From contig NC_092692.1 in NCBI RefSeq assembly GCF_964275005.1, positions 14,391,584-14,455,583 of the forward strand: DNA of 64,000 nt. Direction: 5' to 3'. Source of the stretch: Diadema setosum. Lineage: Eukaryota; Echinodermata; Echinoidea; Diadematoida; Diadematidae. Position numbers and translations under genes: made by a program. Every line of letters starts with the position of its first letter. Position 1 is the stretch's first letter. The notes beneath the pieces were generated by a model. That model was given only the letters and a program-made list of their open reading frames with translations. It was not told where the DNA came from and did no database searches. Shown piece by piece: positions 1,000 through 42,929 of this stretch.

Positions 1000-1048
1000 T
1001 TAACATCAAAGAAATGTTCCCAGTTTGTGACTTGACTGAGAATTGCAC

Positions 1049-1676
1049 CTTTTGTATTCTTGCCATCTCCGTCAGCGAGAATGGTCCAGGGGTAAACCTT
1101 GTCCCCGGCCACTTCGTAGATGATTCCCGTGCGGTCGTCCACAGTGTACAGCTTCCCATTGAAAGTGACCAACTCCGAGAGTTCCATGCCCCGCCCACCT
1201 TGGGAGAGCTGAGACTTTAACTTCACAGGAGTCTCCTCTAAGTCTACCGTTATCTTGTCTCCGTACGAGCTGATGGACAATGTTCCTCTTCTCAGGTAGC
1301 TGAGCCACTGGTTTTCTTTGTCCGGATCTTTGTTGGTGGTGTCTGGGTCCGATATGACGGCAATTTTGTATTTTCTGCCGTCGACTGTTCTCTCGACCGC
1401 AGAAATAGGATAAGTTGAATTGTACACCAGCGCTGCTGGAGCGGCTTGGAATGGAAGATGGTTGTCCATATGATATGACGCCTGTGAGCTTGGAAGAAGC
1501 AGATAGACTAGGAACAACAACATGATTACAACAAGGAGAACTGCAAATTTCGGTCGAATAAATGATGTCATGAAGCGTGTCCAAGGAGGAGAAGGAGCGC
1601 CTGACTTGCTACCTGACGAGGAGCGCGAATCGAAGACCGGTGTTCTCACGTAGCTAGCGCTGCTGGCATTCGGCAT
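1049..1676 (-). CDS. CANT1: CANT1, soluble calcium-activated nucleotidase 1, N-terminal coding exon (gene runs off the left edge)
   Basis: Apyrase-family Ca2+-dependent nucleotidase of the ER/Golgi, which hydrolyses UDP and GDP. This exon gives about 209 residues. It has a short Ser-rich cytoplasmic tail, one signal-anchor membrane segment at residues 44-61 (type II membrane protein, as in vertebrate CANT1), then the start of the lumenal propeller domain with the family strings VYNSTYPIS, GRGMELSELVTFNGKLY, VDDRTGIIYEV and PWTILADGDG. The exon ends at AAAAG|GTGCAA (phase 1), where the vertebrate protein also reads DGDGxxxKG. The ATG at 1674-1676 is the first in frame. The frame stays open upstream to about 1727 and a possible acceptor (TTGTTCAG) lies near 1720, so a further 5' exon cannot be excluded. 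The remaining exons must lie left of the window; nothing in 1-1048 continues the protein. Family call is firm. Confidence 0.93.
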
Positions 1677-2209
1677 GCTGTGTTGTGCCTGTGCCGCTGC
1701 CGAGGGTGAGGTCGAGTTTCTGAACAAATCTCTCGAAATCAGATCTCAGTGGAGATCCACACGTGAAGGCAGATATGCCGGTATTGTGCAAAGATATGTA
1801 ATCTGGCTTGAACTTCGCAGGGCAAAGGTTACTAAGGACGGATAAAGCTATCTCGGTCAGATCCTGCCACGGTCCATGGACTGTTTTCTCACACTCTTGT
1901 ACACCGTAACACGACGCACTGCACTGCAAGCATGCATCAACGAAGGTTGACTACGTGTACGTGTCCATGTGTACCTTTCGGCTTGGAAAGGTATCACTAC
2001 TATTAGACTGATTTTAGTATGATCTTTATATACTGTGTTTAAAACATATTCTATATTCCATAAAGATGTACTTAACATAATACTGATATTATTGATATAT
2101 GATTTTATTCTCATTAAAGACAAAAAATACATTGTACGCTTAATATATGGATTTTTATCTTTTATTGCCGAATCACTTACTTAAGAACGTTTAGCACAAG
2201 CCATCCTAA

Positions 2210-13300: not shown

Positions 13301-15658
13301 GAATATAATCATTGGTAAAACGTATGATGAAAATAAATTTATATCAATATTTATAGAAATGATTATTTAAAAAGGTAGGTAGTCTCTAAGGCACACATCC
13401 GGAGAATTGTGTACTGCCATGGGGGATTTTCATCCAGTCCCATTCGTACAATCGATTACACACTGATGGCAGCTAGAATATGTTTGTCTGACGATCATGA
13501 ATCCATATTGGTTGTGACAGTAAGAGTTTATTCTTTTATACAGCCCTATTCTGCTGTGTTCTAGTTCTCAGAGCTCTTGCCAACACATTGTTTCACTGGT
13601 CGCTGGAATCAAACCTGCAGTAGTGTAACTCCACCTTGCAGGTGCAGCATTCCACCCAGGTTGCCATACTGTGCCCACATACAATGTATATGCTATTAAA
13701 ATGCAATTCATTGATTTTCAACTTCCGTGGTGATCATGCTTTCATCAAACGCTCTTTTGCAGAGAGGAATATTGTTGGTAAAGTGTCTTGTGTAGAACAA
13801 ACACTCTTGAATTTGGGGCCAAAATCAAGCTTTGGACCTCCTTATTGAAAACATACTGTGAACTTCTGTTTCTATGACGCAGCCACAGTTTATCTTTGCT
13901 CACTTTCAACTCGCAGAATTTACAGGATATTACTGCCATTGATGTGGGACTGAAGCACGTAGCTTGGTCACACATGGACCGACAGAGATGGGTCCACCAG
14001 TGGCGCTTCCAGCCAATTGAGGGGATTTCACCTGGCAAGTGGGACCCACTCAACTACCTTAGACTGGTAAGTTTTCTTTGCCTTGTACATTGTTACCAAA
14101 ACACTAATCTTGTGGCTTGATGGTTCCAGGGCTCTTCTGCACATAATCTTGTTTGAAGGAAATTTATTCCATTGAGATACTTTTTTAAAGGAACTCTAAA
14201 CCCTTTGTGAAAGCTATTTTGGAGTAAACCCCACATATTTGAAGGCATTGACGCATCTCTCTCTCTCCTTTTTTTTTTTTTTAAACCCAGTGAGAGGACT
14301 AGAGAGGACTATTCACTTTCTCAGAGAGGATTTGTTTTTGAGGTGCTCTTTCAGCTTTATATTATCATTTTGTGATACAGAGGAAACTCGATATTCAACG
14401 AACACTGGTATAATGAGATATCGATTATTACGAGGAAATTTTCCAAGTCCAAAATTTCCATCAACACAAGTCTATGTAAAAACGCTACTCAACTCTTATC
14501 GCGAGATTGGCCATTACAAAATAAATGCTGTAACAAAATAAATTTGGGATTTCCAAAGGAAAACATAGAGATAATGTGGTCAAATTCAAAAATATCACTT
14601 GGGAATTCATTTCATGAAATATGATATTAAAGTCTTAGAGACTGATATGTATTGATCAATTTGTAGCAAAATGTGACATGTGTATACACTTTCATGAATT
14701 TTTGTGAGAGACATCTTGGTTTAGGGCAGCAGATAAGATTTTATTGCATGATGTCAGATGTTACATTTGTATTTTTTAAATTTGTTATGTTTAGATTTAG
14801 AATGCAAGAGTGTAAGGTCATGCATATACATTGTATTGGCTTGCTATAACAGGCCAGTAATCTACTTGAAGACTGCAGTGCAGTGGTGTGAATTTTGTTA
14901 TGGGATTCAACCACATAACATGTAATTTTGATAACAATCATTCACATATACACAAACAATACGGGTTGGACACCTGCTGAAAGTCTGTATTCTCAAAAGA
15001 CTTGATTTTTTTTTCTTATAGGGAGATGATAAATTTGTAGCAATGCACAGAGAAGCCTGTTTATAAGTACTGTACTTTGGATTTGCAATCTTAGTCTAAT
15101 CAAATGACAAACTAAAGCGCACTGTACAGCTTGTATTATATACAGTAATTAGTGGACTCATTTCATCACATTATAAAGACAGGTTTGCCTTGATGTACCT
15201 TTCGTACTCCTCAGGTATCCAGCCTCATTGACGAGATGCCTCATACTGACCTGTATGTCCTGGAGCACAAGTCTTTCACCTCCCTAAACAAGGGCACCTT
15301 CCAGACCATGCTCTTCATCCGTTGCCTAGAAACGATGTTCTACACCAGTCTCAACAGCAACATCCACGACTCAGGAGAGGTGCGAGCCATCTCCCTTCCG
15401 CAAAACGCTGTCGGAAAGCACTTCGGTCTCCTCGTGGGCAGCCAGCGTAAGAGTGGCCAGAATCTTGTCAGGACGTTACTAAGCGAGGGAACAGAGCGCA
15501 GAAATGCCTGGTTCCCCGTCAGGATTCTGTACGAAAATGCCCTCACCTTTGAGGAATCCAGCAAGTACGAGAGGGAGCATCTCGCAAACTGTCTCCTGAG
15601 AGCCGTCGCTTTCTACGATATCTACATGGACTCAAAGCCTGGATTTAAGTTAAAATGA
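10374..15658 (+). CDS. TEFM: TEFM, mitochondrial transcription elongation factor (five exons, complete)
   Basis: TEFM binds mitochondrial RNA polymerase and makes it processive. Coding exons: 10374-10436, 11804-12114, 12804-12915, 13917-14066, 15215-15658. Phases agree at every junction and all introns are GT-AG. The product is 359 residues; human TEFM is about 360. Exon 1 is only 21 codons and gives an Arg-containing, acid-free presequence (MMSLGSLARTRFLQCW), as expected for mitochondrial import. An in-frame TAA at 10359-10361 fixes the start. Exons 2-3 hold the helix-hairpin-helix region (GLFEKLDDILLIPGIG then RRTLDNLRKDL). Exons 4-5 hold the RNase H-like resolvase fold (ITAIDVGLKHVAWSHMD, DLYVLEHKS, NAVGKHFGLLVGSQRKSG). 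The gene converges on COX19. Gene identity is firm; exon 1 is inference from frame, splice sites and presequence character. Confidence 0.92.
12274..12465. mobile_element. Tc1/mariner-type MITE, CAGTGGACTCCCGTTATAACG family, copy 1 (TEFM intron 2)
   Basis: It starts TACAGTGGACTCCCATTATAA and ends GTGCACTG, and has the same interior landmarks as the copy at 17828-18020 (GGACCGGCAGTTTTCTTTC, then ACAATAAAAAA). The left TA is intact and the right one has drifted. Diverged, so older than the 17.8-kb copy. Confidence 0.8.
12950..13190. repeat. Simple repeats in TEFM intron 3
   Basis: An imperfect ACATGTACATGT palindromic stretch near 13008-13030 and a C-run of about 20 bases from 13083, followed by an A-rich tract. 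No gene content. Confidence 0.6.
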
Positions 15659-17575: not shown

Positions 17576-17827
17576 TTTGGTTGGTATAGACTTGGACTGT
17601 AATGGCTCTTAAACTCATTACAGTGTAATTATTCAAAGCAGAAGCAGATATCCAATTGTCGCTCAAAGTTGTTGGTGGCATTTGTCGAGATTACATGAAA
17701 AGTATGCAGGGACTGAAGGAAACGTACCCTAGTCCCAAGTTATGCAGCTGTATGCATTTGCAGAAAAGTCTAGATTTTTGTGTTTTGTTTTGTTTTGTTT
17801 TGCTCTTTGAATGTATATTTGAGAATA

Positions 17828-18020
17828 CAGTGGACTCCCGTTATAACGAAGTCCTCGGGACCGGCAGTTTTCTTTCGTTATAACGAAATTTCGTTATAAC
17901 CGAATGAATAAACAATAAAAATACATACACTGTAGAGTTGATAATGTTGCGGCCCTAAATTTTATTTCGTTGTAACCGGAATTTCGTTATAACCGTGTTT
18001 GTTATAACGGGAGTGCACTG
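17828..18020. mobile_element. Tc1/mariner-type MITE, CAGTGGACTCCCGTTATAACG family, best copy
   Basis: 193 bp flanked by TA on both sides (17826-27 and 18021-22). Ends are CAGTGGACTCCCGTTATAAC and GTTATAACGGGAGTGCACTG. The sub-terminal GTTATAAC motif recurs several times in both orientations, a plausible multiple transposase-binding arrangement. TA target and CAGTG termini fit Tc1/mariner (pogo-like). Non-autonomous. Confidence 0.88.
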
Positions 18021-18540
18021 TATGTGCAGTGTGTTGTTGGTGGGAAGTTGGTACTAATGCTATATATACTGGTTGTACTGCTAAAATATATGTAAGAAAT
18101 CTAATCCACCTGTAGGGCAGGGGGGTTTGTCGCTGTCCTACTGTACTTCAGTCCATTTAGTCTCATTTTGGTTTTTGCTCTTACTGTTTTCCTGTGGCTT
18201 GTCCTTATAAATGTTTTTGATTTTGGATAAAATGACCCTCTGTTGCAGCTGGTACTTCCCGTGATCCCATTCCCAGGAGAAAGATGAAGACATTAGGATG
18301 GGTACATGTACAATGCATCTTTTAGAACACTGATGACATAAAATGTCATCAACACCTTCCTCCCCTCTACCTCCCAAAATCATGACTTGGCAGACATCCT
18401 CTAAGCTTTTTACCCCCTGTTTTGAAAGTAATTTTAATGATGTAATCACAGAGTACTATACAAATTAGTTCTTAACTACATGTACATCTGAAACAACCAA
18501 GTTCTTTCTCCGTTAGTGTGCATCAAAATATTGCATGATA

Positions 18541-18718
18541 CAGTGCACTCCTGTTACAATGTATAACAAATTTCTGGTTACAATGAAGAAAAAATTCATG
18601 CAGCAACATTATCCACTCCATGTATTTTACTGTTTATTTGTTCGGTTGTAACAAAATTCCGATATAACGAAAGAAAAAAAGTTAGTCCCAAGGACTTCGT
18701 TATAACAGGAGTCAACTG
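18541..18718. mobile_element. Tc1/mariner-type MITE, CAGTGGACTCCCGTTATAACG family, inverted copy
   Basis: 178 bp with TA on both sides (18539-40 and 18719-20). Ends CAGTGCACTCCTGTTACAAT and TTATAACAGGAGTCAACTG. Its GGACTTCGTTATAAC segment lies on the right, so it is inverted relative to the neighbour at 17828-18020, 520 bp away. Confidence 0.85.
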
Positions 18719-19893
18719 TACCATCATAACAAATGTGTGATTGACCTCATAATAGGCTTTGTTGGTGTACACTGTACATGTACAGTTTGTATTCAACTGA
18801 AGAACTAACCACGGAATCAGTTGTTATTTAGTAGATCATGTATTATTTTAATCTCCATGCTGTCATATTTTGACAATAAAAAAGTGCAATGCAATTGTTA
18901 ACTTCATATACATTTGTAATTGTTCTTCTTTGGATTATTAATGTCATTTATGAAATAAATTTTTACCTTATTTAGCCTGCTACTGTATAGTAACTTTGTA
19001 ATGCGATTAATATCATCATGTATTTATTTACCATATCATTCTTTTATCAGTACAATGTATAATAAAGAACATTACAATGTAAGGTGTATGACATAAATCA
19101 ATGTTCTGAAAAAAACAAACAAAAATGTGTGGGGTAGAGCAAAAAAATAATAATACAGCTGTAATAATAATCTAGATGTGTACAGGTATCTACCGGTATA
19201 AGTCAATTTCCTTATGGTTCTTTCTTTTCCCATAAAAGTGAAATCTGTTAAGTTAAGACTTTACCACTCTTACCATGGTAATAGACTGTACCACCAGTGT
19301 TCACAGACACATTTATACATTACATCAATAGAAATAGTGTTCATGCAATTGGGAAATACAGTACACTACATATGACGTTAGATACAATGCCATTCCTAGG
19401 CTTTGAGTCAACATTTTGATACGCCATACATAAAGCATAGAATGAGGAAATGCGACGCATACATTTTATGTCCTATAAAAGACAAGATCACATATTATGT
19501 ATCATAATTACAAAGCACAACCCGATTCATATCCAGTGTCATACTTCTACCATCCATAGCCTTCTCGGTACAAAACCCTACACTGAGAACTCCCATGAGC
19601 CACACTGAACAGCTGCCTCTTTGGAAGGTGGAAATCATCACTACTTGCACACAGCCATCTTGCAAACTAGCTGCATATGCTGCTTTGAATCCCCACAACA
19701 TCATGCCATGAACTGCGGACATAATCGAGGGAATTAAATCAGTTGTTGGCCGTTGATTGCACTGGATCTCTTCTATTTCACCAAGTCCACCATTCGTTGT
19801 AGCTAGGCGCAAACTTTGACCTTGCGTTCGTTGATTTGTAGGTGGAATCTACATCAGAGTAGACCAGCCATCAACAGTTTTTGGGGCCATTCA
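18719..19893 (-). other. Intergenic/3' region between TEFM and COX19
   Basis: This is the convergent space of the two genes. It contains AATAAA on the plus strand at 18875-18880 and near 19061, and TTTATT (AATAAA on the minus strand) near 19023, any of which may end transcripts. No coding similarity. A minus-strand open stretch at 19495-19812 is probably COX19 3' UTR read by chance. Confidence 0.4.
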
Positions 19894-27180: not shown

Positions 27181-27390
27181 GTGTGAATTACATCTTTATG
27201 TGTCAGCCTTTCATCCATACAGGCTGATATAAACTTGGTCTGAGTTCATTCAGGGTCTAAGGTTGTCTGTCTGAAATACATTAAAGCTAAGATTAGTGAG
27301 ACGATGTCATGAATATTTAAAATGCATATTGAATAGCTTTTCTCTAATTTTTCTGCAGTCAAGGGGCCTTATCCTGTCTGTCGAAGTAAG

Positions 27391-29198
27391 ATGAAAGGAA
27401 AGGTCGGCGATGAAGAGCATGAGAAAAAGCTTGAGAAACTGGAGGAAGACTTGTTCCTGGATGTCACATTTGATGTTCAGACCAATGATGAACCTCAGCA
27501 GTCCGTCGCTACAGCCCCGGTCTACATAACGTCCATTGGTAGAGGGGAAAAGAAAGCCCTGAATCCCCTGGATATACCTCTTCCATGGCAGTATTACGAA
27601 CAGGTTGGTTGCTTAGTAATGTTTCCTGTTGAACATTTATTGTTTGTTTCTGACAGAAAAGATTATGCAATCTTGATTATTGCTCCTCCAAGTGTTGTGA
27701 ATTTTCAGAATTAAGTCAAATTTGCCTGATTTTTTTTTTAAATGTAGTGATGTTTGGTCATTTATCTTTTAGGATACTGTTTCACACAGTTTGTGTTTTG
27801 TTAGTGCTTTGCTCTAGACTGTATGATTTTTGTCTCAAATGCTATGTACCACTTATGCTCTAAGAAAAAAAAAACTGCTTTATCTCCATTAGCTCCTCTA
27901 GAAAAGGATAGTGTAATTTAGGCATACTTGGTATTAGATCAAACACTATTGCCTACATGCTATAGTATTTGTGAATGAATTCATTTATAATTCAATCCTC
28001 AATGCTTCCATCAATGGCATCCTTATTTGGCAATAATGTCAACCCTTTCAAGTTTCTTCTTGCCATTTGTTTGGGATTTTACGTTTGTTTATGTTATGGT
28101 AGCTGTCAAAATTACAGAGCTGCCAAGGAAGGGAGGGAGATGGAAGACGTGCCACACCTCCGAGACCTGCCTATCCTGCGCAGCCCCAACTGAAGACAAA
28201 CGGGAAACAGTCTGCGCCCATCGCCTCAAGAGAGAGGGAGAGGGGATGCGGTGGAGAGGGCAAGCCGAGAACAAGGGGGCGTGGCAGGGGGAGAGGAAGG
28301 GACCTCCAGGAAATTCCGCCTTCTTGGAAGCCAAAGCCGTCTGTCGTGCAAATACGAGATCTTGGCAAGAATGGCCTCCCCAATGGTGAGAAAATAGAGT
28401 TCAGGTGATTTCATTTGCAGTTAAGTTACTTCAATAATAAGATTAGTTTAATATAGCAAATTCAGTGCTAGAGTTTTGCCCTACAGAAGCATGCAAATGA
28501 TGAAAATAGCTTTTGCATGGAGATCAAAGTTTGAGATTTTGTGTTGTCCTGAGAGTAATGTGCTTTGAGACTAGGAGGTTTTTTTATATATATAAAAAAG
28601 GTAAATTGGCACCTCGTCTACACCCACCCTGTCCACTGTCCACCTAGTCTAATGCCATCTCGTCTAAACCCACTTCGTCTACTACCAACTCGTCTACTAA
28701 CCATTTTGTCTATATGCCAATTAGTCTAATTGTCATTTTGTCTACTAGCCATTTTATCTAATGTCCAATTTGTCTAAGTCACATTTCGTCTAACACCCAT
28801 TATGTCTATTGACCATTTCGTCTAGTAATCATAAGGTCTATGAATAGAATAGTCTACAGCTCATTTTGTCTAATACCCAATTGGTCTACAACTCATTGTC
28901 TAATAGTCAATTAGTCTAATAACCAGTCAGTCTACTGTCAACTAGTCTACTGCCAACTGGTCTACTCCCAACTCGTCTACTCCCAATTGGTCTACACCCA
29001 ATTGGTCTACTCCCAACTCGTCTACTCCCAATTGGTCTACTCCCAACTCGTCTACTCCCAACTAGTCTACACCCAACTTGTCTACTGCCAACTCGTCTAC
29101 TCCCAATTGGTCTACACCCAACTCGTCTACTGCCAACCCATATCTACTGCCAACTCGTCTACTGCCAACTAGTCTACTCCCAACTGGTCTACTACTAG

Positions 29199-29237
<39 letters not shown>

Positions 29238-32200
29238 ATTTAAGTTTACTTCATCCATTTTCTTTTTTCCCAGTTAAATAGGTTGAACACTCTTGGTGCC
29301 CCATTTGGTTTAAATTTTTATGTTCTAATTATGACAATTTTTTTAGGAAAAAAAGATAATGTCACAGTGTGAAAAACTTGCTGTGTTATTTTTGTGTTGG
29401 ATGTGTAATTTATATCAGAAGCAATCATGCAGCATTTATATGTCCAAACTTCAACACTCCATCCATTCAACTTTGATACACAATCATAAGTATGGTAAAA
29501 ATGAAAAGGAACACATTAGAAGTACATTATCAGTATTCTTTATTCTGTGTGCCACGTACTGATGTATGTAAACGTTTAAATGCACAAAAAAGGTTGAAAC
29601 ATATACACAAAAATATGATTCATGTACAATTTATAGCTACTACTAAGATGAATAATTTACTTGCCTACAATGTACTCAATACACGTTTCGCGAGGAACCC
29701 TAAATAAGCATTTATATGTCCAAACTTCAACACTCCATCCATTCAACTTTGATACACAATCATAAGAATAATAATCCATCCAACTACACGCCCACATCGT
29801 AACAACTAGAATAGTCTAATATTGATTTTTGTGCTAATCAAGGGCAGGGTTTGATATGAATAGTTCATGACAGTGAGACGGACTAGACACTAGACAAAGT
29901 GGTATATTCATTATTAGCATGACCAGATGGAAATGATCATTTTGGGTAAATTGTTGAGAGTAAAACTATATCAGTTGGGAGTACACCAATTGGGTATAGA
30001 CGAGTATAGACCAATTGGGAGTAGACCAGTTGGGAGTAGACCAGTTGGTAGTAGACCAGTTAGGAGTAGACCAATTGGGAGTAGACCTATTGGGAGTAGA
30101 CCAATTGGGAGTAGACCAATTGGGAGTAGACCAATTGGGAGTAGACCAATTGGGAGTAGACCAATTGGGAGTAGACGAGTTGGGAGTAGACCAGTTGGTA
30201 GTAGACCAGTTGGGAGTAGACCAGTTGGGAGTAGACCAGATGGGTATAGACCATATTGGGTATGGACAAACTAAGGGTTGGACGATATGATAACTAGACA
30301 AAGTGAATGTAGACTGAATGACTTGTAGACGAGGTGGGAGTAGACTAACTAGTAGTAGACAAAATAGATATTAGACGACATGGCAAATAGACATTGTGAG
30401 TGTAGACGATTTGGCTATTAGATCAATTGTTTTGTAGACGAAATGCTCCTTAGACGAGTTGGGTATTAGACAATACGGGTAGTGGGCAAAGTGACTATTA
30501 GACAATATGGGTACTGGACAAAACGAGTTGTAGACCAAATGGGTATTAGACTAATCGGTAATAGACGATATGCCAGTAGACCAATTGGAAAATAGACATA
30601 GTGGCTGTAGACGAGGTTACTATAAACCATAAAAAATATACTTCCAGAAGTTAAAGATATTTAAGTGAATGCTAGGGCTGAATGAAAAGAAAAAAAAAAC
30701 AAAACAAAACAAACACACAACCAACAGCAAAAAACGGACAAGAAGGCCTTGTCCTATCATTGCAAATTAGAACAATTATTCAGTTGCTTTTCAGCAAGAA
30801 ACACCAGTTCCTCTATCTTTCAGTCACTTCAATAAACTGGACTCGTCTGAATTTCATTGTATGCTTGTGATTTCAATGTTGCCTAGATTTTTTTGTCATT
30901 CTGCAAACCAACAAACCCTTGATAGCATGAAGAAAGACTGTGTGAGGTATCTTTGATACATGTGGCAACAAATTTTGCATTTGGAATAGGCATGGTGATC
31001 ATAGCACTATGATGAATTCAAAATTTTCTGGAAACCAAGTTAGCTAGTGTAATGGTAATACATCAAAAGAGGGTATATTGTTTGAAAGTTTGCATAATGA
31101 TGAAAACAAGGAAGGGAAGTTTGCAATAGCACCTATGAAAAGAGAGGTATTGTTCAGATGATATGTGATGACTATTGTAAAAAGCACCCATGCGCAAGAT
31201 GTTCCAGAAATTGAATTGTCCTTAAATCCATTCAACTCATGTACTGTAAGACAGCCTTTGTATACATCGTAGCAATTATACGGTCTGATATTTTGTGTTC
31301 ATGATATCCAGGTGATGCTGAGCTGGAGGAGGGTAAAGCTCACCTCATGCAAATGTTTCTCGGTAAGCGGTCACAGTTTGAGCCAGAACGGGAAATCTCC
31401 TTTCAATGCTCTGATTCCTCGGTGCGTACCTCCCAGACTGCACCAAACTTTGACCTCCGCAATGAGGCAGACTTTCCGGCGATAATCTCCAAGGGGATGC
31501 CCTTCAAGTCGGCCCGGTCGGCCGGGGATGCGTCACCGGGGCGGAGGAAGCCCAAGAGGCAGGAGGACATGGACGGATGTCTCGGTCCGGCTGGGAGCAG
31601 AGGAGAGGACAACGCCTCCTCCAGTTGCAGATCAGAGAGGCGGGGCAAGCCGACTGCAAACCACTATGAGCAGCAGCATCCTGATGGTGTGGAGGTGTGT
31701 GTTTGAGTGGAGGAAGGAGAATGCTCTGTCACTATGGCAACAGAGCCTACAAAGTTCTTTGGGTTTTTTTGTTTTGTTTTGTTTAAGTTTTTTTCACCAG
31801 ATTCTATTTGCATGATGGACATGAAAATGTTCTTGTCATTGCTCTGTTTGTATGTTATTTTATTTGTGTGTTTGTTTTTTTATGCCTCCGCCACGAAGTG
31901 GTGCCGGAGGCATTATGTTTTCGGGTTGTCCGTCCGTCCGTCCTTCCGTCCGTCCGTAATGAATTTTGTGGACAAGGTAACTATCGAAACCTGTTAAGGT
32001 ATCCTAATGAAACTTGGCATGTATGTGTATTAGGGGGTGAAGTTGTGCCTATCAACTTTTGGGTGCACATGCTCAAGGTCAAAGGTTAAAAGGTCAAGGT
32101 CAAATACATAAAATTTCACTATTTCCACCATATCTATTGAATGCCTGAAGATATTTTCTTGAAACTTAGTGTATACATGTTTTACCCAATTAAGATTCTC

Positions 32201-35200
32201 TGGTGAAAGTTTGGATCATGAGGTCAAAGGTCAAAGGTCAAAAGGTCAGGGTCAAATACATAAAATTTCACTATTTCCACCATATCTATTGAATACCTGA
32301 AGAGATTTTCTTGAAACTTAGTGTATACCTGTATTACCCAATTAAGATTCTTTGGTGAAAGTTTGGGTCATGAGGTCAAAGGTCAAAGGTCAAAAGGTCA
32401 AGTAAAAATATTAAAACTTCTTTTTTTTCTCCGTACCTTGGAAAATTGTCCAAGGAATCTTCATGGAACATAGTATATACATGTACTGACTGGAAGTGAT
32501 TATCTAGAGAATGTAGGGTTCATGGGGTCAAAGGTCAGGGGTCAAAGGTCAAGTGCAACACTTCAAAATTTTACTATTACCCTCATATTTATGCAATGCC
32601 AGCAGGGTTATTTTTTTACACTTGGTGTATGCGTGTGTAACCTAATAGAAATTCTCTGGAAAGTTTTTTTTTTCTCTTTTTGCCTCAAAGGTCAAAAGGT
32701 CAAAGATCAAGTGAAAATGCTGAACTAACTTTTTCCTCCATATCTCGGAAGTGGCTCAAGTTACCTTGAAACTTAGTACATATTGTGCATGTTCTACCTG
32801 AAAGTAATTATCTTATGAATTTTAGGGTCAAGGGCCAGATGAAAATGGTAACAATTTACTATTCAATTCAGAAATTGCACTTTTTCTCCACACCTGTACC
32901 TTGAAAATTACTCAATGCCTAAATGTATGAATGGGTCAAAGTCAAGTTAAAGTCCTTAAATCCCTAGATATATGCTCTCCTATTCATCCAATTAAACCTA
33001 CGTCAAGGAAGGTGAACATTCAACACATTTGTGACAAACTTGTCATTCCAATATTTTTGCCAATTTTGTGAAAATGTAATCACACAGTGTCCACATGTAC
33101 TATCTAGACCTACTGGGAAAATCATGCATTATGGCGGAGGCATACCAGTCGCCAAAGCGACATTTCTAGTTTTGTGTGAAATTTATATCTTGTAAAAGAT
33201 ATGTGATGTTGTCAACCAAACTTTGGCTTTAGGATAGAAGTGGTCTTCAACAAGTTTATACGATCCGTAATGTTTCAATTTTTCTGAGGTGACTGCCTTA
33301 TTTTATAAGTGTCTTTGAAATGTATGCATGAGGCATGAGGGGCTTTTTTTTTTTACATAAATTCATAAATGTTGCAGGTCTCTTTTGTGTGTATACTTGT
33401 CCACTTTGAACCAGATAGTGTTGCACAGTCATCTCCTTTTGGTCAAAACTTGCAAAACTAAACTTCTTTTATAAATTTTGTGATACTTTAGTTACCAAAA
33501 CTTCCACGCCTAGAAATCATCATGAAGTAAACACAGGATTGTATTTTGTAATTTTATCAAAGATAGAAATAATGATAATAAAAAGGCTTTCATTAAGTTA
33601 CTGCCTTGACAAGTTACTATTGATTTAGTTTTTGAAATAATACCCTTGTGGTAATTTTCAGCCTACCCAAGGAATCTGTGTGCACATTTTGCAACGAGTG
33701 CCCCAAGTTGTCGAAATTAAAGGACAAGTTCACCTTCATTAACATAAGGATTGAGAGAATGCAGCAATATTAGTAGAACACATCATTGAAAGTTTGAGGA
33801 AAATCGGACAATTTGTTCAAAATTTATGAATTTTTGAAGTTTTTGTGCAGTCACCGCTGGATGAGAAGACTAGTGCAGTGTATGATGTCACATGCGTACA
33901 ACAGTATAAGGAAAATATAAAGAGAATTTCACAAAATTTCATCTTTTGAAAAAAGTACACATTCCCTCGACTCGTTACTGACATATATTATGGGTTATAT
34001 TATTTCCATTGCCTTTAGAAAGAGGCAAGTCAAGTGCTCTTTTATTATGCGAAAAAAGTGAAAATATGTTGAATTTTCTTTACATTTTATTTATACTGTT
34101 GTACTCATATGACATCACAAGCCTTAGTAGTCTCCTCATCCAGAGGTTCCAACACAAAAATTTTAAAAATTCATAACTTTTGCATCGATTGTCCAATTTT
34201 CCTCAAACTTTCACTGATGTGTTCTACTTATATTGCTGCATTCTCTCAATCCTTATGTTTATAAAGGTGAACTTGTCCTTTAAGAAAAATGTATAGAATG
34301 AGATTTGCCATTAGATCCATCTTTATGTCCATCATGATCCAGCGTATGTGTTATGAATGTGAAAACATAGTTCCCACATGTCTGCAGAGAGTTTAATTTT
34401 AACTCTAAAATGTACACATATCATATGCATAAGAAACTCAGGCGGATCCAGGAATTCCGTAAAGGGGAGGTGCCTTTACAAAATTAAAGGGGGCACAAGT
34501 GCCCCCCCCCCGTCATTTTTTCCTTTTTATTTCTTTTGTTTTGACAAAAAACAAAGAGGGGGCGCGCCTTGTGCCCCCCCCCCCCCTGGATCTGCCACTT
34601 AAACTTGTGAAATAAGATACTAATAACACAATTTCAGTTGGATAAAAAACAAAAATGTGAAATATTAGCCAAAAAGGTATGCCGACAGTATGCTGTCTAT
34701 GAGCATATCAGATTGTGATTGCTATGTAATGTTTTAGAATTGATTACCAACAGGGCCATAGCAGGGTCCATTGATCTTCCTTATGAGAGTAAATCCATCA
34801 TCAAGTGACATTCTACCTACCCACAATGTCACTACTGAATGCGGAGGGTGCTTCGGGAATAAAAGTTGTCTACTATGATCAAAACTATTTTACAGTTTTG
34901 ATCCAAAACTGCAAGGAGAAAAGACAAGATTCATTGTGGACCCTTTTGGTGTATTGAAAGCAAATTTCAAATGGTGGAAGAAGAATTTTGAGCCCTTCTA
35001 AAAACCACGTTTTACCTCTAACTTTTCCACTTAGCCTCTGGAGGGGCCCAACGTCCTGGAACTATCTGGTCTTCCAGCGGGGCTAAAGAGGAGTGACCTC
35101 GGTGACCTGCTGATGGGATGTGGACACATTGTGGCCATGAAATTCCTAAAAGATACTGACACACAGTTGTGCATAGGACTGGCCTATGTCAGGTTAGTAC

Positions 35201-38200
35201 TCTGTATATCTCTATTTATCAATTATCATTTATCTTTGGCACGTTCTAATGCATATATGCTTATGATATGATTCCTGATTTATTCTGTGTTATGTTTTGC
35301 TGGAAGGAAAATGAGAATGAAAATAAATGAATTAAATATTGAATATTTTGATGGATTTACTGCAACACATTTCAACCTCTTGGTTCTCGTAGTCTTTTGC
35401 CACAAATGGTGACAAGAAAAATAATGATTTGAGGAAATCTTGATGCAGTTATCAGGGATGTGAGAGTTCAGAGTTTAATCTGATTTCAGACTTTTCTATT
35501 CTGCCCCAAACCCATTTTTCAGACTTTTTGGTCAGTTCAAATGCATTGAAATGTTAATAGCTTTATGCACTTCAGAATATATATAAGATAATAATATATG
35601 ATATATAATATATAATGTATATTATATAATATATTAGTATGTAATATATAATTATATATATATATATATAGTATATATGCAGGGCTCGACACTAACGGTG
35701 GCCCGGTGGCCTGGGGCCACCAAAAATGCACATCGGGCCGCCAAAATTTCAGAAATGAAGAATTTGGTGGCCTGATTGGGCCACCAAAAAAGGTCGGATG
35801 TTTGCCTTTGGGCCACCAAAAATAAAAGTTAGTGTGGAGCCCTGATATATGTATATTGTATACATATATATAAATTTTTTTTTTGATAAGTTCAGAACTT
35901 TTCAGAGTTTTTGCTGCAAGTACTCTCACACTTCTGAATCATGTTTGTGTGACTTTTAGTGACTTGACTTCTCTATCCTGAAGGATATAAAATTTCACAA
36001 TTGCTTCGTGATATAATTTCACAAATAGTGCACTATCCAGTGACATCAATTTCCAAATAGTATACAGTGGAGTGTCAAGCAGGCCAGGATCTTGAAATAA
36101 TCGAAAATGCATTTAATCATGTAAAACGCTTTCAACCAACTAGAGGATCGATTTTATTATCCCAAATATAATAGGCAATACATTGTATGTGAAATTAATA
36201 ATTGCAATATCTTTCATGTTTGTTTGTTTGTTTGTCTTTGAAAGGATGGAGACTGCAGAAGCCTGTGAGCTAGCCATCGCATCGTATGACAATGTTGAGT
36301 CTCCTTTTACTGGTAAGATTCTGCAGTTCGTACATGTTTAGTAATATGGTAGTTGATGTTTAGCTATGGGTATTCACATACTATATTCTGTATCATTTCT
36401 TTTTAGTTAACTTTATTGAAGTGGTTTTATTGATATTTGTTGCCTTTTTTCTTGTTTCTTTTTCTTTCTTTCTTTTTCGGTGGGGGGGGGGGGGGAGGTA
36501 GAGGGTGATTTGCATATCTTAGCCATGTTTCACATGATTGCATCACTTCAAATTTTATGTTGAATCTAACAACTGGTATAATATACCGAAGTATGATGTC
36601 GTGGGCATTCACTACCATGGAAACTGGTTCTGAACAAGTAGCCACGTAACCAGAATATTATGAACACATGCTAACCATACTCAAACAAAAGACTGCGACA
36701 TCATCACTTTGGTACTCTATATTGATTGAAATTCAAAGTATTTTTGTGTGATATTTTAATGAGATTAGATATTGTGTGGCAACACCTTCCCAGCAGATGA
36801 TAAAAGTGGGAAATAATTCAGTGGTGTACTAGTCACTATGGCCTGTTACCAAGATAAATGAATGCATCAAGAATATAGTGATTACTCAAGAAGTCAGAAG
36901 CATTTCAGTTGTCGACATGCTGCAGTTGAGTAATCTATTTTGTCAGAGTCAAGAGATTTTTTAATGGTTAAATTTCAGGTGAACGTGATGATGAAATCAT
37001 ATCCATATATTATGATTGGATTTATGAAATAGTATCGTTGTCCTATGCTGATGTGCTTCCATCGTCGGTCTCATGAAATATCTCTGTGTACTACCTCATT
37101 CTTTCTTAGAAATGTATGATGGAGAGGTGCCAAAACTCAGCGTGCGTCTCTGGCAGTCGTCATGACCGCACAGGAGTGACCACTCTTCCACGTCCATTTG
37201 TCTTCTTCCAACACTCTTACCAGGAATGACCACCTGGATCTAGAGTCCCATCTTTTCCTGTCAAAGCACGCTTAATAGTGTTCATGACAGGCAGAATTCT
37301 GTAAGTGCTAGATGTTGCATTCAATCGAAAAAGAACAAGAGGTTGAGATGATTTGTAAGTGAACTTATATTTGTCAGTACTGTCATGCTGTTCAGGCAAG
37401 TAGTCTAAAGTTATGAATATACAGCACACTTTGTTTTTGTTCTTGTTTCATTTGGTTTCATTTTGTTACGTAGCGAGCCTTCCTTGCATTGATGAGCTGT
37501 GAGCCACAAACCATGCTGTAAGAAAAAAAAGTGGTCAATTGTTTTAGGAATGCTTCACGAGTACTTACAGTTGCAAAGATGCCACTGTTGAATTATTGCT
37601 GCATTCATGCAGACAGTATGTGTGTGTGATTCACATTTTATAAAATAGGTTCAAGAACGTAGCCAATAGGAAGCACTGAAATGAGTCACGTGGGCTCTGA
37701 TTACTTTAGTAGCATTGCACTGCAGTACCAGTGTGCACTCAATCAGTTGTTACAAGTGCGTCGCACGCTACTTATACGCGCTGTCAATACCTGTAAACAA
37801 CTTCTAGTTCGGTCTGCGTATGCCGGCCGGCCTTTTTTTGTGTGCATAGCATATTATGTGGCGTACGTATACAGTACTCGATACGTACAGTACTTACATG
37901 TGCGGGATTTCCGAGTGCGACAGTGCTTGACTCGACTCTCGATCTCGAGCGAGTACTACATGTAGCTGACTGGACTATTGACCCATAAAGGTACGTGAAA
38001 ATGCTGTTAGTTTTCGACCCATTTTATAAAACAAATGATGCACAGCATTATTTCGTGGCGTTAGTGGAGACGCAGCTCACTCTCGGGTATTTACAATGTA
38101 GTGCAACATGCACTCGGCTTCGCCTCGTGCATGTTTCACAATTGTAAATACCCTTGAGTGCGCTACGCCTACACTAACGCACTCTATCCTGTGCATCATT

Positions 38201-40512
38201 TGTATATTGGTACATTGTAAATCTACTGCCAGTTTGTAGAGGGAAGGGTGAAGTTACAAATGTCTACAACTAATGAACTTTGCTCAAACACTACACTCAT
38301 TTAGTGGTTTATGCAGCCGAATTGAGTGATTCAAGTACAGTATACAATCAACTAATAATGAATAAAATATTTCATCAGTCTTGAACAGTAGACGGCAGTG
38401 CTTTGCCAATGTTATGCTGCTCTTTCTTGCGACAGTGTAAGGTTCGTATGTAGTACATTATATTGCCAAAGACTAGGGCAATTAATGATTTTTTTTTTCT
38501 TGAGATTCATTGCACAAGCAGATAAATATGTCACACCATGACCTGTCTACCACACATTAATAGTGTGAAACATAACCATGCATGGCGAGAAGAGAGATTT
38601 TGCATTCAGTGAAACATGTTATCGTTTCTATGGAAACTGTTAATTGCTACCCAGCCAAAATCTGGGCTCACTGATAGTTACACTGTGCAATACAGAAGTC
38701 GTGTTCAACAACTACAGCATTTTATTATTGTTTTCTTCCAGCATATCAAAAATTCCGTGCACAAATTAAGATCATATTGAATATTCAGATTTCATATAGA
38801 ATAGTCCATTGAATATATGCCATGAATTTAATAAACAATTATCAGCCAGTAATCACAATTTCATTTCATTCTTGCGAGCTGGATGTGGACATCGCTGCAT
38901 ACACCTTGCAAGTCTGATTTTCAAAGAAAGAAATTGGAATCAGGGCACAGATGTCAAACTGAAAAATTCATCAGTTCTCCACAAAGTGCTGCAGTATATT
39001 CTGGAGTTGTACCATTTTGCTTTCCCTCTGTTCCTCTACATGTATATATGATTACATTAACAGAATGTTTAGGCATTTTTTGCCCAAATGGCTCCATGTG
39101 AGATTTTCCTCTCATCTTGAAAGAACACCAACACATTCTGGATTAGGGCCCGGGAGTATCAGAGCTTTAGCGTAGGGATTCCTATGCCTCAATTATATTT
39201 GAAAGGTAAATATTGAATGAACTATTGCATTTGTGTATACCAATTGGAATCCTTCAGTACAAATTTCAGAGAATGATTCCCTTTCCATGGAGTGTTTTAC
39301 CATAAAAAGGTTGTCCTAGTAGTCAACCTCATAATCATACTGACCCCGCAGCTTCTTAATTGCTGGAGGGTTGGTTCCCATTTAGCACAAATTGAATGAT
39401 GGAAGTACATACATATATGCTGCATATCTTTTTTGCCATGTGTACATATCATGTTGCATATTCAATCATTGTACTGTACCACTGGTATTGACCTTTGCAA
39501 TTCAATGTGTGTATTTATATTTTGCATCCCTTATAACAAAAGTTGTTTGACTATAAGACATCCTGCTTGCCCCCCTTCCCCATATGATATCAGAAACTTG
39601 ATGCTAACTGGCTTCCAAGTACTGAAATTCTTGACTGTGTACAGGTGGAAGAAATACAGTATTTTGTCTCTAGATTTTTCAGAGTGAAAAAAAAAGAAAA
39701 TTAATGCATTTAAAATAATCTAGTAAAGTGGCATATCATGGAGATTTTGCTCTTTGAATATCAGAATTCATATGAAAGAAACAAAATAAATGAATTCATC
39801 CTTCTTTTTTCACTAATTGTTTTTTTTTTCTTTTTGTTCATGTTTAGTGTTAAAATCTTATAAGTGTGAACTTATTATATAGTATATGTACTTGATGCAT
39901 GTACACTGCAGCACGACACACTGTTCATATACTAGTTATCAACCTAGTGTAAGTTGAATTAGCTTGGGCAACAGAATGTATGTGTACAATGTACGTGAAC
40001 TCATGGAGAAATGGATTTGTTCATATTCATTATTCATTTATTTTATTGGAGTCAGTTCATGTGATTGTTTTTGTGGGGTGTTTCAAGTAGGCTTTGTGTG
40101 CCCTGCTACACAATGTTGACTGTACTTGTGCTGTGCTGAAATACGAAGCATGTGTCGAACATTTCAAGATGTACTGGGGTGAGTGGCTGGAACACTGTTG
40201 ATCTGTATACTGTGTTGTCATGGTAACAATTTGATCAAATATTAACATAATCTGATATGAGATGATGACATTGATTTGATGTCTTTGAAATTGTGTGATT
40301 TCTTGCTATGTCGTCAGTCAGCTGGAATATCAACAATATCAGGTCACTGCCTTTTTTTGTGGTGGACAGGATAGTGTATGAAATTTTGTTCATGTTTTAA
40401 TCAATTTTCAGCAGAATCTGCAATTGATCTGGAAAGATGGGTCGATGCCTGTCGAGATCCGTACTTGAACAAATCTGAATGGGGAAGTGCAGATGAAATT
40501 TACATGCAGTGA
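27391..40512 (+). CDS. RG-rich RRM-domain protein, family not recognised (six exons)
   Basis: Coding exons 27391-27603, 28118-28385, 31312-31694, 35035-35192, 36245-36312 and 40412-40512. All are GT-AG with phases 0, 1, 0, 2, 1, giving 396 residues. Residues 1-71 are acidic and end NPLDIPLPWQYYEQ. Residues 122-133 form a TRGRGRGRGRG tract, the type of Arg-Gly sequence often dimethylated and bound by Tudor domains. NEADFPAI at 211-218 resembles short FPA(I/L) motifs of RNA-binding proteins. Residues about 293-362 look like an RRM, with VLELSGLP as the RNP2-like strand and CIGLAYVRM as the RNP1-like strand. The tail is LERWVDACRDPYLNKSEWGS. Probably an mRNA- or germ-granule-type RNA-binding protein, but that is inference. 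Intron 2 carries the TU-like element. Extra exons between 36312 and 40412 are possible. Confidence 0.72.
28600..30628. mobile_element. TU-like foldback element with 15-bp tandem repeats in long inverted arms, apparently intact
   Basis: An exact 8-bp duplication, ATAAAAAA, flanks the element (28592-28599 and 30629-30636). The ends GGTAAATTGGCACCTCGTC and (inverted) GGTTTATAGTAACCTCGTC are imperfect inverted repeats. Each arm is an array of 15-bp units, TCTACTCCCAACTGG and variants: left arm 28610-29195 and right arm 29950-30615 in opposite orientation. The middle holds about 740 bp of AT-rich DNA. Long inverted repeats made of 15-bp tandem units with 8-bp target duplications were described for TU elements of Strongylocentrotus purpuratus. 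It lies wholly inside intron 2 of the RRM/RG gene. Open frames inside the arrays are a by-product of the 15-bp period. Confidence 0.9.
29431..29766 (+). repeat. Exact 60-bp direct repeat in the core of the TU-like element
   Basis: 29431-29490 and 29707-29766 are identical over 60 bases (AGCATTTATATGTCC ... CAATCATAAG), 216 bp apart. The core contains no recognisable protein-coding frame. Confidence 0.85.
31882..33170 (+). mobile_element. Hairpin-start interspersed repeat, type 3 (ATGCCTCCGCC...GGCGGAGGCAT)
   Basis: Begins with the hairpin ATGCCTCCGCCACGAAGTGG / GCCGGAGGCAT, followed by GTCCGTCCGTCC repeats. Internal units of about 185 bp follow at 32090-32400 (TAAAATTTCACTATTTCCAC, TTCTTGAAACTTAGTGTATA, GAGGTCAAAGGTCAAAGGTC). 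It closes with ATGGCGGAGGCATACCAGTC and GCGACATTTCTAG. The terminal 11-12 bases are inverted repeats of each other. It lies in intron 3 of the RRM/RG gene. Confidence 0.7.
33721..34279. mobile_element. TTAA-flanked palindromic MITE, family B, intact copy
   Basis: 559 bp between TTAA (33717-33720) and TTAA (34280-34283). The ends AGGACAAGTTCACCTTCATT and ...AAGGTGAACTTGTCCT are inverted, and the complementarity continues for roughly 200 bp per arm, so the element is nearly one large palindrome. TTAA fits piggyBac/Kolobok-type targeting. In intron 3 of the RRM/RG gene. Confidence 0.85.
34441..34600. mobile_element. Short hAT-like MITE with GGCGGATCCAGG ends and C/G-runs
   Basis: GGCGGATCCAGGAATTCCGT at the left and CCCTGGATCTGCC at the right are inverted. 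Both ends are followed internally by GGGGGCACAAGTGCCCCC-like and GCGCCTTGTGCCCCC strings. A decayed relative begins near 26043 (GCAGATCCAGGCATTTCGTA). No clear target duplication. Confidence 0.6.
35550..35880. mobile_element. 165-bp MITE (CAGGGCTCGACACTAAC family) inserted in an AT microsatellite
   Basis: The element runs from 35680 to 35844: CAGGGCTCGACACTAAC at the left, GTTAGTGTGGAGCCCTG at the right. ATATATG is present on both sides (35673-35679 and 35845-35851). Its interior has several GGCCACCAAAA/GGCCCGGTGGCC repeats. A 7-8-bp duplication and CAGGG end are hAT-like, but the flank is itself an AT repeat so the duplication is weak evidence. Flanking TATATA tracts are included in the span. 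Confidence 0.7.
36313..37640. other. Intron 5 of the RRM/RG gene, first part
   Basis: T-rich tract and a G-run near 36482-36495. The rest is AT-rich with no repeat or exon that I can support. Confidence 0.4.
37650..37990 (+). promoter_or_regulatory. Possible alternative promoter/first exon ending in a strong splice donor
   Basis: A CpG-enriched stretch (GTGCGTCGCACGC, GCCGGCCGG, CTCGATCTCGAGCGAG) ends at CATAAAG|GTACGTGAAA, a near-consensus donor at 37990. It lies inside the long last intron of the RRM/RG gene. It could start a short transcript that splices to the exon at 40412 or serve another gene. No homology supports it. Confidence 0.3.
38031..38203. mobile_element. 173-bp foldback element with ACAAATGATGCACAG ends
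   Basis: The left arm (ACAAATGATGCACAG, CGTTAGTGGAGACGCAGC, GGGTATTTACAATG) is inverted in the right arm. The loop is CTCGGCTTCGCCTCG. The whole sequence is an imperfect hairpin. No coding capacity. Confidence 0.6.
38204..40411. other. Intron 5 of the RRM/RG gene, second part
   Basis: AT-rich sequence with short T-runs and TGCATG-rich stretches. I recognise no exon, repeat family or RNA gene here. Confidence 0.4.
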
Positions 40513-40859: not shown

Positions 40860-42908
40860 GAGTATGAAACCCCGTTATAACGAGGTCCTTGGGACCGGCG
40901 ATATTACCTCGTTATAACCGGTACCTCGTTATAACCGTACGCATCAAAACAAAGAAAAACATAAGCACGACATCGGAATATACCCATCCTGTGCGTTGTT
41001 ATTACACAATTATGGATCATTATTTTTGAGATAATAAAGGGAAATTATTTGTGAATCAGACGAAAAAGTAGATGTTGAAATGAGATAATTCTTTATTGTA
41101 ATTCTTGTTTGTTAATTTTTCCTAACACCAAGCAGCGCAAATAGAGTAAAATACAGGCGTTGTTCACCATAACTTGCGAGGTATTTTTACGCTGTTGTAC
41201 GTAGTGTTGGTGCCCAGCGGGAATGCGATGATTTCATGAATCATTTCGGCTGTAATCTTGTACAATATAATCTTATGATCGTTGCGCTCGAAGGGATTAA
41301 AAATGCGTTCTTTATTTTCTTCCGAAAATTTCTTCACGTTTTGTACATCCGTTCTTGAAAAATATGCGACAGGATTGAATGTGGAAGGTTACGTTGTGAT
41401 CCTTTTTACGCAAATCTGTACCTCATAGACCATTCTGAAAGAAAGAAAAATCTTCATTGTGAAATGCAGTGTTAAAATTGTGATAATGAACAAACCCAGA
41501 TCTATTCAAACTAATAAATACGTTTGTTTCTTTTTCTGATTTAGGTTAACATGCTTATTCAACTATTTTTACGCTATACTGTCACCTGGCGAGATCGCGA
41601 TAATTTCAGATTAACATACATGCGTTATTTACCGTTAGTGGTATTTTACGCTGTTGGAGCCCAGCGGGAATTCGATAATTTCATGAATCATTTCGGCTGT
41701 AATTTTATACAATGTATGATCGTTGCGTCCGACGGGATTAAAAATGCGTTCTTACTTTCTTTCGAAAATCTCTTCGCGTTTTGTACATCCCTTGAACTGT
41801 TAAATGCGTTTCTTTTTCCGAACACCGATTAAGTAGGTTAATATGCGTTATTCAACTATTTTTACGCTACTGTCACCCGTCGAGATCGCGATGATTTCAT
41901 TAATTATTTCGGCTTTAATCATACACACTCGTATTTAAATTATCATTTGTTAAATGATAATGACAAATCCAGATCTATTCAAATTAATAAATGCGTTTGT
42001 TTCCTTTTCTGACACCGATTAAGTATGTTAACATGCGTTATTCAACTATTTTACGCTACTGTCACCCGACGAGATCGCGATGATTTCATTAATTATTTCG
42101 GCTTTAATCATACACCTCATATTTAAATATCATTTGTTAAATGATAATGAACAAATCCAGATCTATTCCAATTAATGAATGCGTTGTTTCTTTTTCTGAA
42201 CACCGATTAAGGAGGTTAGCATGCGTTATTCAACTATTTTTACGCTACTGTCACCCGACGGGATCGCGATGATTTCATTAATTATTTCGGCTTTAATCAT
42301 CCACACTCATATTTGCTAAGCAGCAAAAGAACTGGAAGTCGGAACTAAAAATGGAAAGGATATAATAATGAGTTGCACACGCATTCCAAGGTGTCCATTT
42401 TTGGCCACAAGTGTCGCTACATGAAAAGTTTTGATGCGTTATCTTTTTTATTTCTCGTTGCGGTGTGGTCTGCCTAATATCACGCCACGCGTATCTCGCG
42501 GAAAAGAAAATCGAATGATTATGTTTAATGATTTAGTAGGAACATCGGAAGACATTCCTGTGTGCTTATCGCGTGATTTAGAAGGAACATGGAAGGAACG
42601 GTCTCTGCAAAACGGAAAAAGACGTGGATAGCGTGATTTCGGTTTTCAGGGTTTCGTTTGTCGCGTGTTTGAAAGCGGCAATTTAGTCAAGAAATGGAAC
42701 CTCGTTATATCCGATCAAATTGCTTATGTTTTGTTTATCATGATGCACCGAAAATTGTCCTCGTTATAACGGAATCTCGTTATAACCGAACTCGTTATAA
42801 CCGATTCGTTCTGCATAGGTTTACACGCAAAGAAAACGGGACCGACGCGATCACCTCGTTACAAGCGGTTCCTCGTTATAACCGAACTCGTTATAACGGG
42901 TTTCACTG
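40860..42908. mobile_element. 2-kb Tc1/mariner-type element with reiterated CTCGTTATAACCG ends and internal tandem units
   Basis: The ends GAAACCCCGTTATAACGAGG and (right) GTTATAACGGGTTTCACTG are inverted, next to TA at 42909-42910. Each sub-terminal region repeats CTCGTTATAACCG-type motifs: at least three copies on the left by 40940 and seven or more on the right between 42765 and 42900. The interior has units of about 190 bp (near 41835, 42030 and 42215) with CATGCGTTATTCAACTATTT and CGATGATTTCATTAATTATT. A separate pair of related 160-bp segments lies near 41190 and 41650. No transposase frame is recognised; non-autonomous. Confidence 0.75.
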
Positions 42909-42929
42909 TACAGAGTGTAGCCATTATGC

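What the first reader, a model, noticed from the sequence alone, without database searches (positions are those of the whole stretch)
28592..30636. Apparently intact TU-like foldback element with 15-bp tandem-repeat arms inside an intron
Both ends, both arms and an exact 8-bp duplication (ATAAAAAA) can be read. Long inverted arms made of 15-bp direct repeats plus 8-bp duplications were reported for sea urchin TU elements, so this looks like a member or relative. That is a useful marker for the source lineage. TU elements are old literature with little modern classification, and their transposase source remains unclear to me. No coding frame is visible, so it must be mobilised in trans.
Basis: partly seen in the sequence, partly recalled or inferred. 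Interest (0 to 1): 0.75.

Follow-up and report, generated by a model that had tools for sequence, protein, structure and literature searches.

The report
Sea-urchin foldback transposon, probably MULE-type
This is a 2-kb jumping-DNA element without genes of its own in a long-spined sea urchin, whose two ends each carry about forty evenly spaced copies of a short motif that is probably the landing pad for a transposase made elsewhere in the genome.

Summary
A 2029-bp element lies at 28600-30628, with GGT...ACC ends, an exact 8-bp duplication (ATAAAAAA), two inverted arms of about 600-660 bp and an AT-rich 770-bp middle with no recognisable coding frame.

Correction: only the inner half of each arm is a clean 15-bp array. 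The outer half steps by 15 or 16 bp with near-random linkers, yet keeps a bipartite motif, YCANNTNGTCTA. About 80 copies point inward. Homogenisation would not keep a motif while linkers randomise, so the motif was probably selected, most likely as a transposase-binding site.

A 12-bp motif with 3-4-bp spacers, an 8-bp duplication and foldback form match the published anatomy of Muta1, an active Phantom-type Mutator-like element of Aedes aegypti. I favour a non-autonomous Phantom/Muta-type MULE. Merlin is the main rival. TU membership could not be tested: no TU sequence or paper was reachable, and the host genome could not be searched. New member of a known kind, with a concrete lead on the transposase behind sea-urchin foldback elements.

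The parts
28592..28599 (.). Left copy of the 8-bp target-site duplication ATAAAAAA
   Evidence: Sequence; chance estimate
28600..28615 (+). Left terminus GGTAAATTGGCACCTC, before the first GTCTA core
28616..28929 (+). Left outer arm: 20 steps of mostly 16 bp; motif YCANNTNGTCTA conserved, linkers near random
28930..29196 (+). Left inner arm: homogeneous 15-bp array GTCTACTCCCAACTS (16 of 18 parsed steps are 15 bp)
29197..29966 (.). Middle segment, 770 bp, 30% G+C, no recognisable coding frame; TA and poly-T runs at its left edge; holds a 60-bp exact direct duplication
29967..30251 (-). Right inner arm: homogeneous 15-bp array in inverted orientation
30252..30612 (-). Right outer arm: 23 steps of 15-16 bp, inverted; motif conserved, linkers near random
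30613..30628 (-). Right terminus; reverse complement GGTTTATAGTAACCTC
30629..30636 (.). Right copy of the 8-bp target-site duplication ATAAAAAA

Best explanation
A non-autonomous cut-and-paste DNA transposon of foldback form, most likely of the Phantom/Muta branch of Mutator-like elements (MULEs), in the sea urchin Diadema setosum. Shown: the ends, the 8-bp duplication, and about 80 inward-pointing copies of a 12-bp motif (YCANNTNGTCTA) separated by 3-4 bp on two inverted arms, the motif conserved while the linkers are near random. Inferred: the motif binds the DNA-binding (zinc-finger) domain of a transposase encoded by another element; many sites per end recruit several transposase molecules and give specificity; the transposase cuts at the GGT ends and inserts at staggered cuts that yield 8-bp duplications; the inner halves of the arms grew later, each on its own, by unequal exchange or replication slippage; the middle segment is cargo.
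For: Exact 8-bp duplication directly outside matching termini. Motif at 9 of 9 positions: 28 plus-strand and 23 minus-strand copies in the element against 1 and 1 in the other 62 kb; at 7 of 9, 38 inward copies in the left arm and 43 in the right, against 2 and 1 on the opposite strand. In the outer steps CA..T, columns that the parser does not use, have 17 of 129 mismatches against 130 of 258 in linkers, P about 2e-13. Muta1: 8- or 9-bp duplications, 12-bp repeats with 3-4-bp spacers, foldback form, non-autonomous derivatives with unrelated middles, active in yeast; Muta5: 15-bp repeats (PMC5225508, passages). Tm1: foldback arms of about 14-bp units with a Phantom-type transposase (PMC3169594, passages). 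Arm repeats of Galileo bind its transposase domain (PMC3688188, passages).
Against: No transposase, no second copy and no empty site could be examined. Classification rests on anatomy from one copy, and the papers say that foldback form arose in several superfamilies. The Phantom host list in PMC6446971 names no echinoderms, and a survey of 100 animal genomes calls MULEs rare in animals, median 0 (PMC8277862). Muta1 and Muta5 have 9 repeats per end, not about 40, and Muta1 has a 10-bp palindromic terminal motif that I do not see here. MULE duplications are more often 9 bp. The split into a 12-bp motif plus 3-4 bp was made after I read about Muta1, although the column table came before. The GG start and 8-bp duplication fit Merlin equally.
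Confidence: 0.62

Rival explanations
1. A non-autonomous Merlin element: the same kind of anatomy and cut-and-paste movement, but moved by an IS1016-type (DDE_Tnp_IS1595) transposase in trans.
For: Merlin elements start with GG, have TIRs of 24-462 bp and 8- or 9-bp duplications, and some have very imperfect TIRs or internal tandem repeats (PMC8101967, passages). The ends here start with GG and the duplication is 8 bp.
Against: The passages seen describe no ladder of 12-bp motifs with 3-4-bp spacers in both arms; the arms here (about 600-660 bp) exceed the stated TIR range.
Confidence: 0.15
2. A foldback element of another or undescribed superfamily (P-type like Galileo, hAT-type, or a TU lineage with its own transposase), convergent in form.
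For: Foldback arms arose in several superfamilies; Galileo is a P-type element.
Against: From recall, P and hAT ends start with CA, which is not met here. The Galileo repeats seen are about 210 bp, not 15-16 bp.
Confidence: 0.19
3. Not a transposon: two minisatellites made by local inverted duplication, with a chance 8-bp match in A-rich flanks.
For: The inner arrays alone look like a minisatellite pair, and ATAAAAAA is a simple A-rich word that occurs 10 times in the window.
Against: Matching termini stand directly inside an exact 8-bp duplication (0 of 61,946 at other positions); motif orientation flips across the middle; full 9-of-9 motif matches are nearly absent outside the element.
Confidence: 0.04

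Closest known systems
Muta1 and Muta5, Phantom-type MULEs of Aedes aegypti (PMC5225508, passages seen)
   Same: 8- or 9-bp duplications; long TIRs made of a terminal motif and subterminal repeats; Muta1 12-bp repeat with 3-4-bp spacers, Muta5 15-bp repeat; called a type 2 Foldback; derivatives without transposase, with unrelated middles and variable repeat numbers
   Different: 9 repeats and 145-151-bp TIRs per end, here about 38-39 steps and 600-660 bp; Muta1's 10-bp palindromic terminal motif not seen here; mosquito host; letters of the repeats not compared (not given in the passages)
Sea-urchin TU elements (from recall; papers not held)
   Same: Recalled: sea urchin, long inverted arms with 15-bp direct repeats, 8-bp duplications, variable middles
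   Different: Sequence not compared; different and distantly related urchin genus
Tm1 of root-knot nematodes (PMC3169594, passages seen)
   Same: Foldback arms with variable numbers of 13-15-bp units; Phantom-type transposase in one class; units more conserved at one end
   Different: 9-bp duplications most common; 1-9 units per arm; arms on average 93% identical; asymmetric 7-bp terminal motifs
Galileo and Tetris of Drosophila (PMC3688188, PMC3573991, PMC4079207, passages seen)
   Same: Long internally repetitive arms; in Galileo the repeats bind the transposase THAP domain; Tetris has 8-10-bp duplications and is assigned to Mutator by its authors
   Different: Repeat units of about 210-220 bp; [quoted passage not shown] different hosts
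Merlin (PMC8101967, passages seen)
   Same: GG ends, 8-9-bp duplications, some families with very imperfect TIRs and tandem repeats
   Different: Stated TIRs 24-462 bp; no motif ladder of this kind in the passages seen

Membership tests
TU elements (sea urchin) | Found in a sea urchin | tested here: met
   Apyrase exon 100% identical to Diadema setosum
TU elements (sea urchin) | 8-bp target duplication (recalled) | tested here: met
   ATAAAAAA on both sides
TU elements (sea urchin) | Long inverted arms built of 15-bp direct repeats (recalled) | tested here: met
   Inner arms clean 15-bp arrays; outer arms mostly 16-bp steps
TU elements (sea urchin) | Sequence homology of ends and unit to published TU | not testable with these tools
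   No TU sequence reachable; papers not held
Phantom/Muta MULE | Target duplication of 8-10 bp | tested here: met
   8 bp; range from PMC6446971
Phantom/Muta MULE | Subterminal tandem motif; in Muta1 12 bp with 3-4-bp spacers (a feature of part of the group) | tested here: met
Phantom/Muta MULE | MULE transposase, usually with FLYWCH finger, in an autonomous partner with the same ends | not testable with these tools
   The genome search gave no answer in 11 tries (listed in Tried and rejected)
Phantom/Muta MULE | Palindromic terminal motif (Muta1 only) | tested here: inconclusive
   The terminal 14 bp pair as GGT/ACC on the left and GGTT/AACC on the right, an imperfect palindrome unlike the 10-bp motif described
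Merlin | Ends start with GG | tested here: met
   GGT on both ends
Merlin | 8- or 9-bp target duplication | tested here: met
   8 bp
Merlin | IS1016-type transposase in a partner | not testable with these tools
   Host genome not searchable
hAT or P superfamily | Ends starting with CA (recalled) | tested here: not met
   Ends start with GGT
Foldback form (structural class, not a lineage) | Long inverted arms with internal tandem repeats around a middle | tested here: met

The most novel reading that the evidence does not exclude
Sea-urchin TU elements, for which I know of no identified transposase, are foldback members of the Phantom/Muta MULE branch. Their arm repeats are an amplified array (here about 40 per end) of a 12-bp transposase-binding motif with 3-4-bp spacers, held by selection while linkers and arms diverge freely; the hairpin form is then a by-product of many binding sites and not itself what is selected.
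Probability: 0.35. Interest if true: 0.55.

Novelty: new member of a known kind. Interest (0 to 1): 0.4.

Why it matters
It gives sea-urchin foldback elements a testable transposase candidate and a precise search key: GGT-N8-ACCTCGTCTA at both ends, inverted (each found once in the window, at the two ends of this element), and YCANNTNGTCTA every 15-16 bp. It also suggests, from one copy, what the arm repeats are for. The motif is kept while the linkers are near random and the outer arms have largely lost their likeness, which speaks for selection on binding sites and against selection for a perfect hairpin. In the Diadema setosum genome paper 25.87% of the assembly is unclassified repeat (PMC11066563, passages), where such elements could hide.

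Tried and rejected
Other copies. The unit pattern GTCTANNNNCCANNTNGTCTANNNNCCANNTNGTCTA gave 0 in viral contigs and 0 in genome contigs; a narrower variant gave 0 in viral contigs, so did a 22-base piece of the middle. The end pattern gave 1 viral contig (L001), which I take as chance: 17 specified bases, and no periodic GTCTA around it. These collections are viral, bacterial and archaeal, so the zeros say nothing about copy number in the urchin. Within the window blastn found no second copy: outside the element the left arm had no match at E up to 1, the right end one 15-base match (E 0.37), the middle only TA/poly-T runs and matches of 20 bases or fewer.

Spurious proteins as a test of distribution: the open frame of the left inner array against 5.8 billion proteins had 4 candidates and no hit. 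Intron test: two exon candidates joined; the one hit covers the downstream exon only.

Hairpin energy: the strand folds with DNA parameters to -402.2 with 421 of 722 pairs between the arms; no shuffled control was run, so it carries no weight.

Set aside: arm-to-arm gene conversion (inner units slightly more alike within an arm, 0.878, than between arms, 0.858, p = 0.008); plain minisatellites; Rehavkus (9-bp duplications, minisatellite before the 3' TIR).

TU in print: library searches showed me no held paper on TU elements themselves; PMC7986276 cites one and PMC4079207 names the sea-urchin foldback. The library lacks most subscription papers.

Full report
What is there. Between 28600 and 30628 lies a 2029-bp element, flanked by ATAAAAAA at 28592-28599 and 30629-30636. 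At the same spacing no other position of the window (0 of 61,946) has identical 8-bp flanks. The termini are GGTAAATTGGCACCTCGTCTACA and, on the other strand, GGTTTATAGTAACCTCGTCTACA. Inward run two inverted arms and then a 770-bp middle of 30% G+C.

Host. The apyrase exon at 975-1742, minus strand (Pfam PF06079), is 100% identical to a Diadema setosum protein over 82% of the query; Strongylocentrotus and Lytechinus proteins are at 71-72% (the best 120 of 296 hits were listed). The window is therefore Diadema setosum or a very close relative, order Diadematoida.

Anatomy of the arms. Split at the GTCTA core, the left arm gives 38 steps and the right arm 39. The inner 18 and 16 steps are nearly uniform, GTCTACTCCCAACTS; 16 of 18 and 16 of 16 are 15 bp. 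The outer 20 and 23 differ: 31 of 43 are 16 bp, 11 are 15 bp, 1 is 14 bp, and 36 of 43 keep an exact GTCTA. In the outer steps the four bases after the core have a mean pairwise identity of 0.34, the core 0.93. Three more columns, CA..T, are kept at 88%, 88% and 84%. Read in the other register this is a 12-bp motif, YCANNTNGTCTA, with 3- or 4-bp spacers. The column table came first; the division into 12 plus 3-4 was made after I read about Muta1.

Controls. With 9 of 9 scored positions matched, the element has 28 plus-strand and 23 minus-strand copies and the other 62 kb has 1 and 1; with 8 of 9, 35 and 38 against 14 and 9; with 7 of 9, 43 and 47 against 163 and 165, which is over 8 times denser in the element per base. 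At 7 of 9 the left arm has 38 plus-strand and 2 minus-strand hits, the right arm 43 minus-strand and 1 plus-strand; at least one of these, at 28899, is off register. Markov-1 versions of the arms give means of 4.4 and 4.8 and maxima of 12 and 13 in 1000 each, against 38 and 42. The parser chooses steps by GTCTA and so favours it. On 2000 Markov-1 versions of each outer arm it gave about one step on average (maximum 12) and at most 3 exact cores. The CA..T columns, which the parser does not use, still differ from the linkers: 17 of 129 against 130 of 258 mismatches, P about 2e-13.

What the pattern means (inference). Homogenisation would keep linkers and motif alike; neutral decay would lose both. 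Keeping the motif while the linkers go to near random points to selection on the motif while the lineage was still moving. The intact duplication suggests that most of the divergence is older than this insertion, though eight A/T bases are weak evidence of age. The outer arms keep a faint common register: ten-column identity 0.54 against a permutation mean of 94.8 of 200 (0.47), p = 0.013. With linker columns only, four uncorrected tests gave: units 1-20, 0.43 against 0.36, p = 0.054; units 1-6, 0.47 against 0.34, p = 0.072; units 1-12, 0.50 against 0.36, p = 0.007; units 13-20, 0.33 against 0.36, p = 0.68. So the arms may have begun as one inverted pair and drifted apart; this is suggestive only. 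The inner arrays seem to have grown separately: 15 of 16 right-arm units end in G against 6 of 16 in the left, and likeness within arms exceeds that between arms (0.878 against 0.858, p = 0.008).

Mechanism. Eight of the 17 frames listed in the region were scanned and none reached a Pfam cut-off, so the element is probably moved in trans. The likeliest reading is that each arm is a ladder of transposase-binding sites. In Galileo the THAP domain of the transposase binds sites in the arm repeats, and the authors suggest that many short sites supply specificity; they note that repeats of Foldback and Phantom elements were untested (PMC3688188, passages).

Which transposase. Muta1 of Aedes aegypti transposes in yeast, makes 8- or 9-bp duplications, and has TIRs of a 10-bp terminal motif plus 9 copies of a 12-bp repeat with 3-4-bp spacers. 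Muta5 has 9 copies of a 15-bp repeat. Ten of 12 long-TIR families there have such repeats, and derivatives carry unrelated middles and varying repeat numbers (PMC5225508, passages). A phylogeny places Muta within Phantom (PMC6446971, passages). Tm1 of nematodes combines a Phantom-type transposase with foldback arms of about 14-bp units (PMC3169594, passages). The agreement in duplication, motif and spacer length is the main argument for a MULE. Against it: foldback form is convergent; the Phantom hosts tabulated include no echinoderm, although the same paper reports echinoderm MULEs in another clade; MULEs are called rare in animals (PMC8277862, passages). Merlin, with GG ends and 8-9-bp duplications (PMC8101967, passages), is not excluded.

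TU. The recalled hallmarks (sea urchin, long arms with 15-bp repeats, 8-bp duplications) are met, but no TU sequence could be compared and the papers asked for are not held. I call the element TU-like, not TU.

Intron. The exon from 31312 has a homologue. The upstream candidate, 27359-27607 on the same strand, has none. The element lies between them; an intronic position is likely but not shown.

Limits. The host genome could not be searched: the genome search did not answer in 11 tries. Copy number, autonomous partners and empty sites remain open.

Noticed in passing
29431-29490 and 29707-29766: A 60-bp exact direct duplication inside the middle segment, 276 bp apart, with unlike flanks; perhaps a trace of templated gap repair.
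   Followed up: partly
28580-28599: The insertion lies at the edge of a 20-bp perfect palindrome, TTTTTTATATATATAAAAAA, whose right 8 bases are the duplicated target. A plant MULE family targets TA microsatellites (PMC4486113, passages).
   Followed up: no
40860-42925: Probable non-autonomous element with inverted ends of the GAAACCC(C)GTTATAACGAG kind and repeated CTCGTTATAACCG motifs near both ends; looks like a pogo/Tc1-type element (from recall).
   Followed up: partly
12271-12445, 17825-18022, 18538-18720, 51216-51402: Four copies of a short dispersed repeat with ends of the ACAGTGGACTCCCGTTATAACGAAGTCC kind, two on each strand; looks like a related MITE family (from recall).
   Followed up: partly
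33717-34283 and 54300-54705: Two near-palindromic elements with TTAAAGG ends; TTAA targets recall Kolobok or piggyBac MITEs (from recall).
   Followed up: no
38031-38203: A 173-bp imperfect palindrome with ACAAATGATGCACAG ends.
   Followed up: no
57134-59869, minus strand: Pieces of a LINE-type retrotransposon: endonuclease (PF03372) and reverse transcriptase (PF00078) domains in separate frames.
   Followed up: no
11747-12118, plus strand: Exon with a helix-hairpin-helix domain (PF12836), perhaps of a TEFM-like gene with the frame at 15194-15658 (guess from recall).
   Followed up: no
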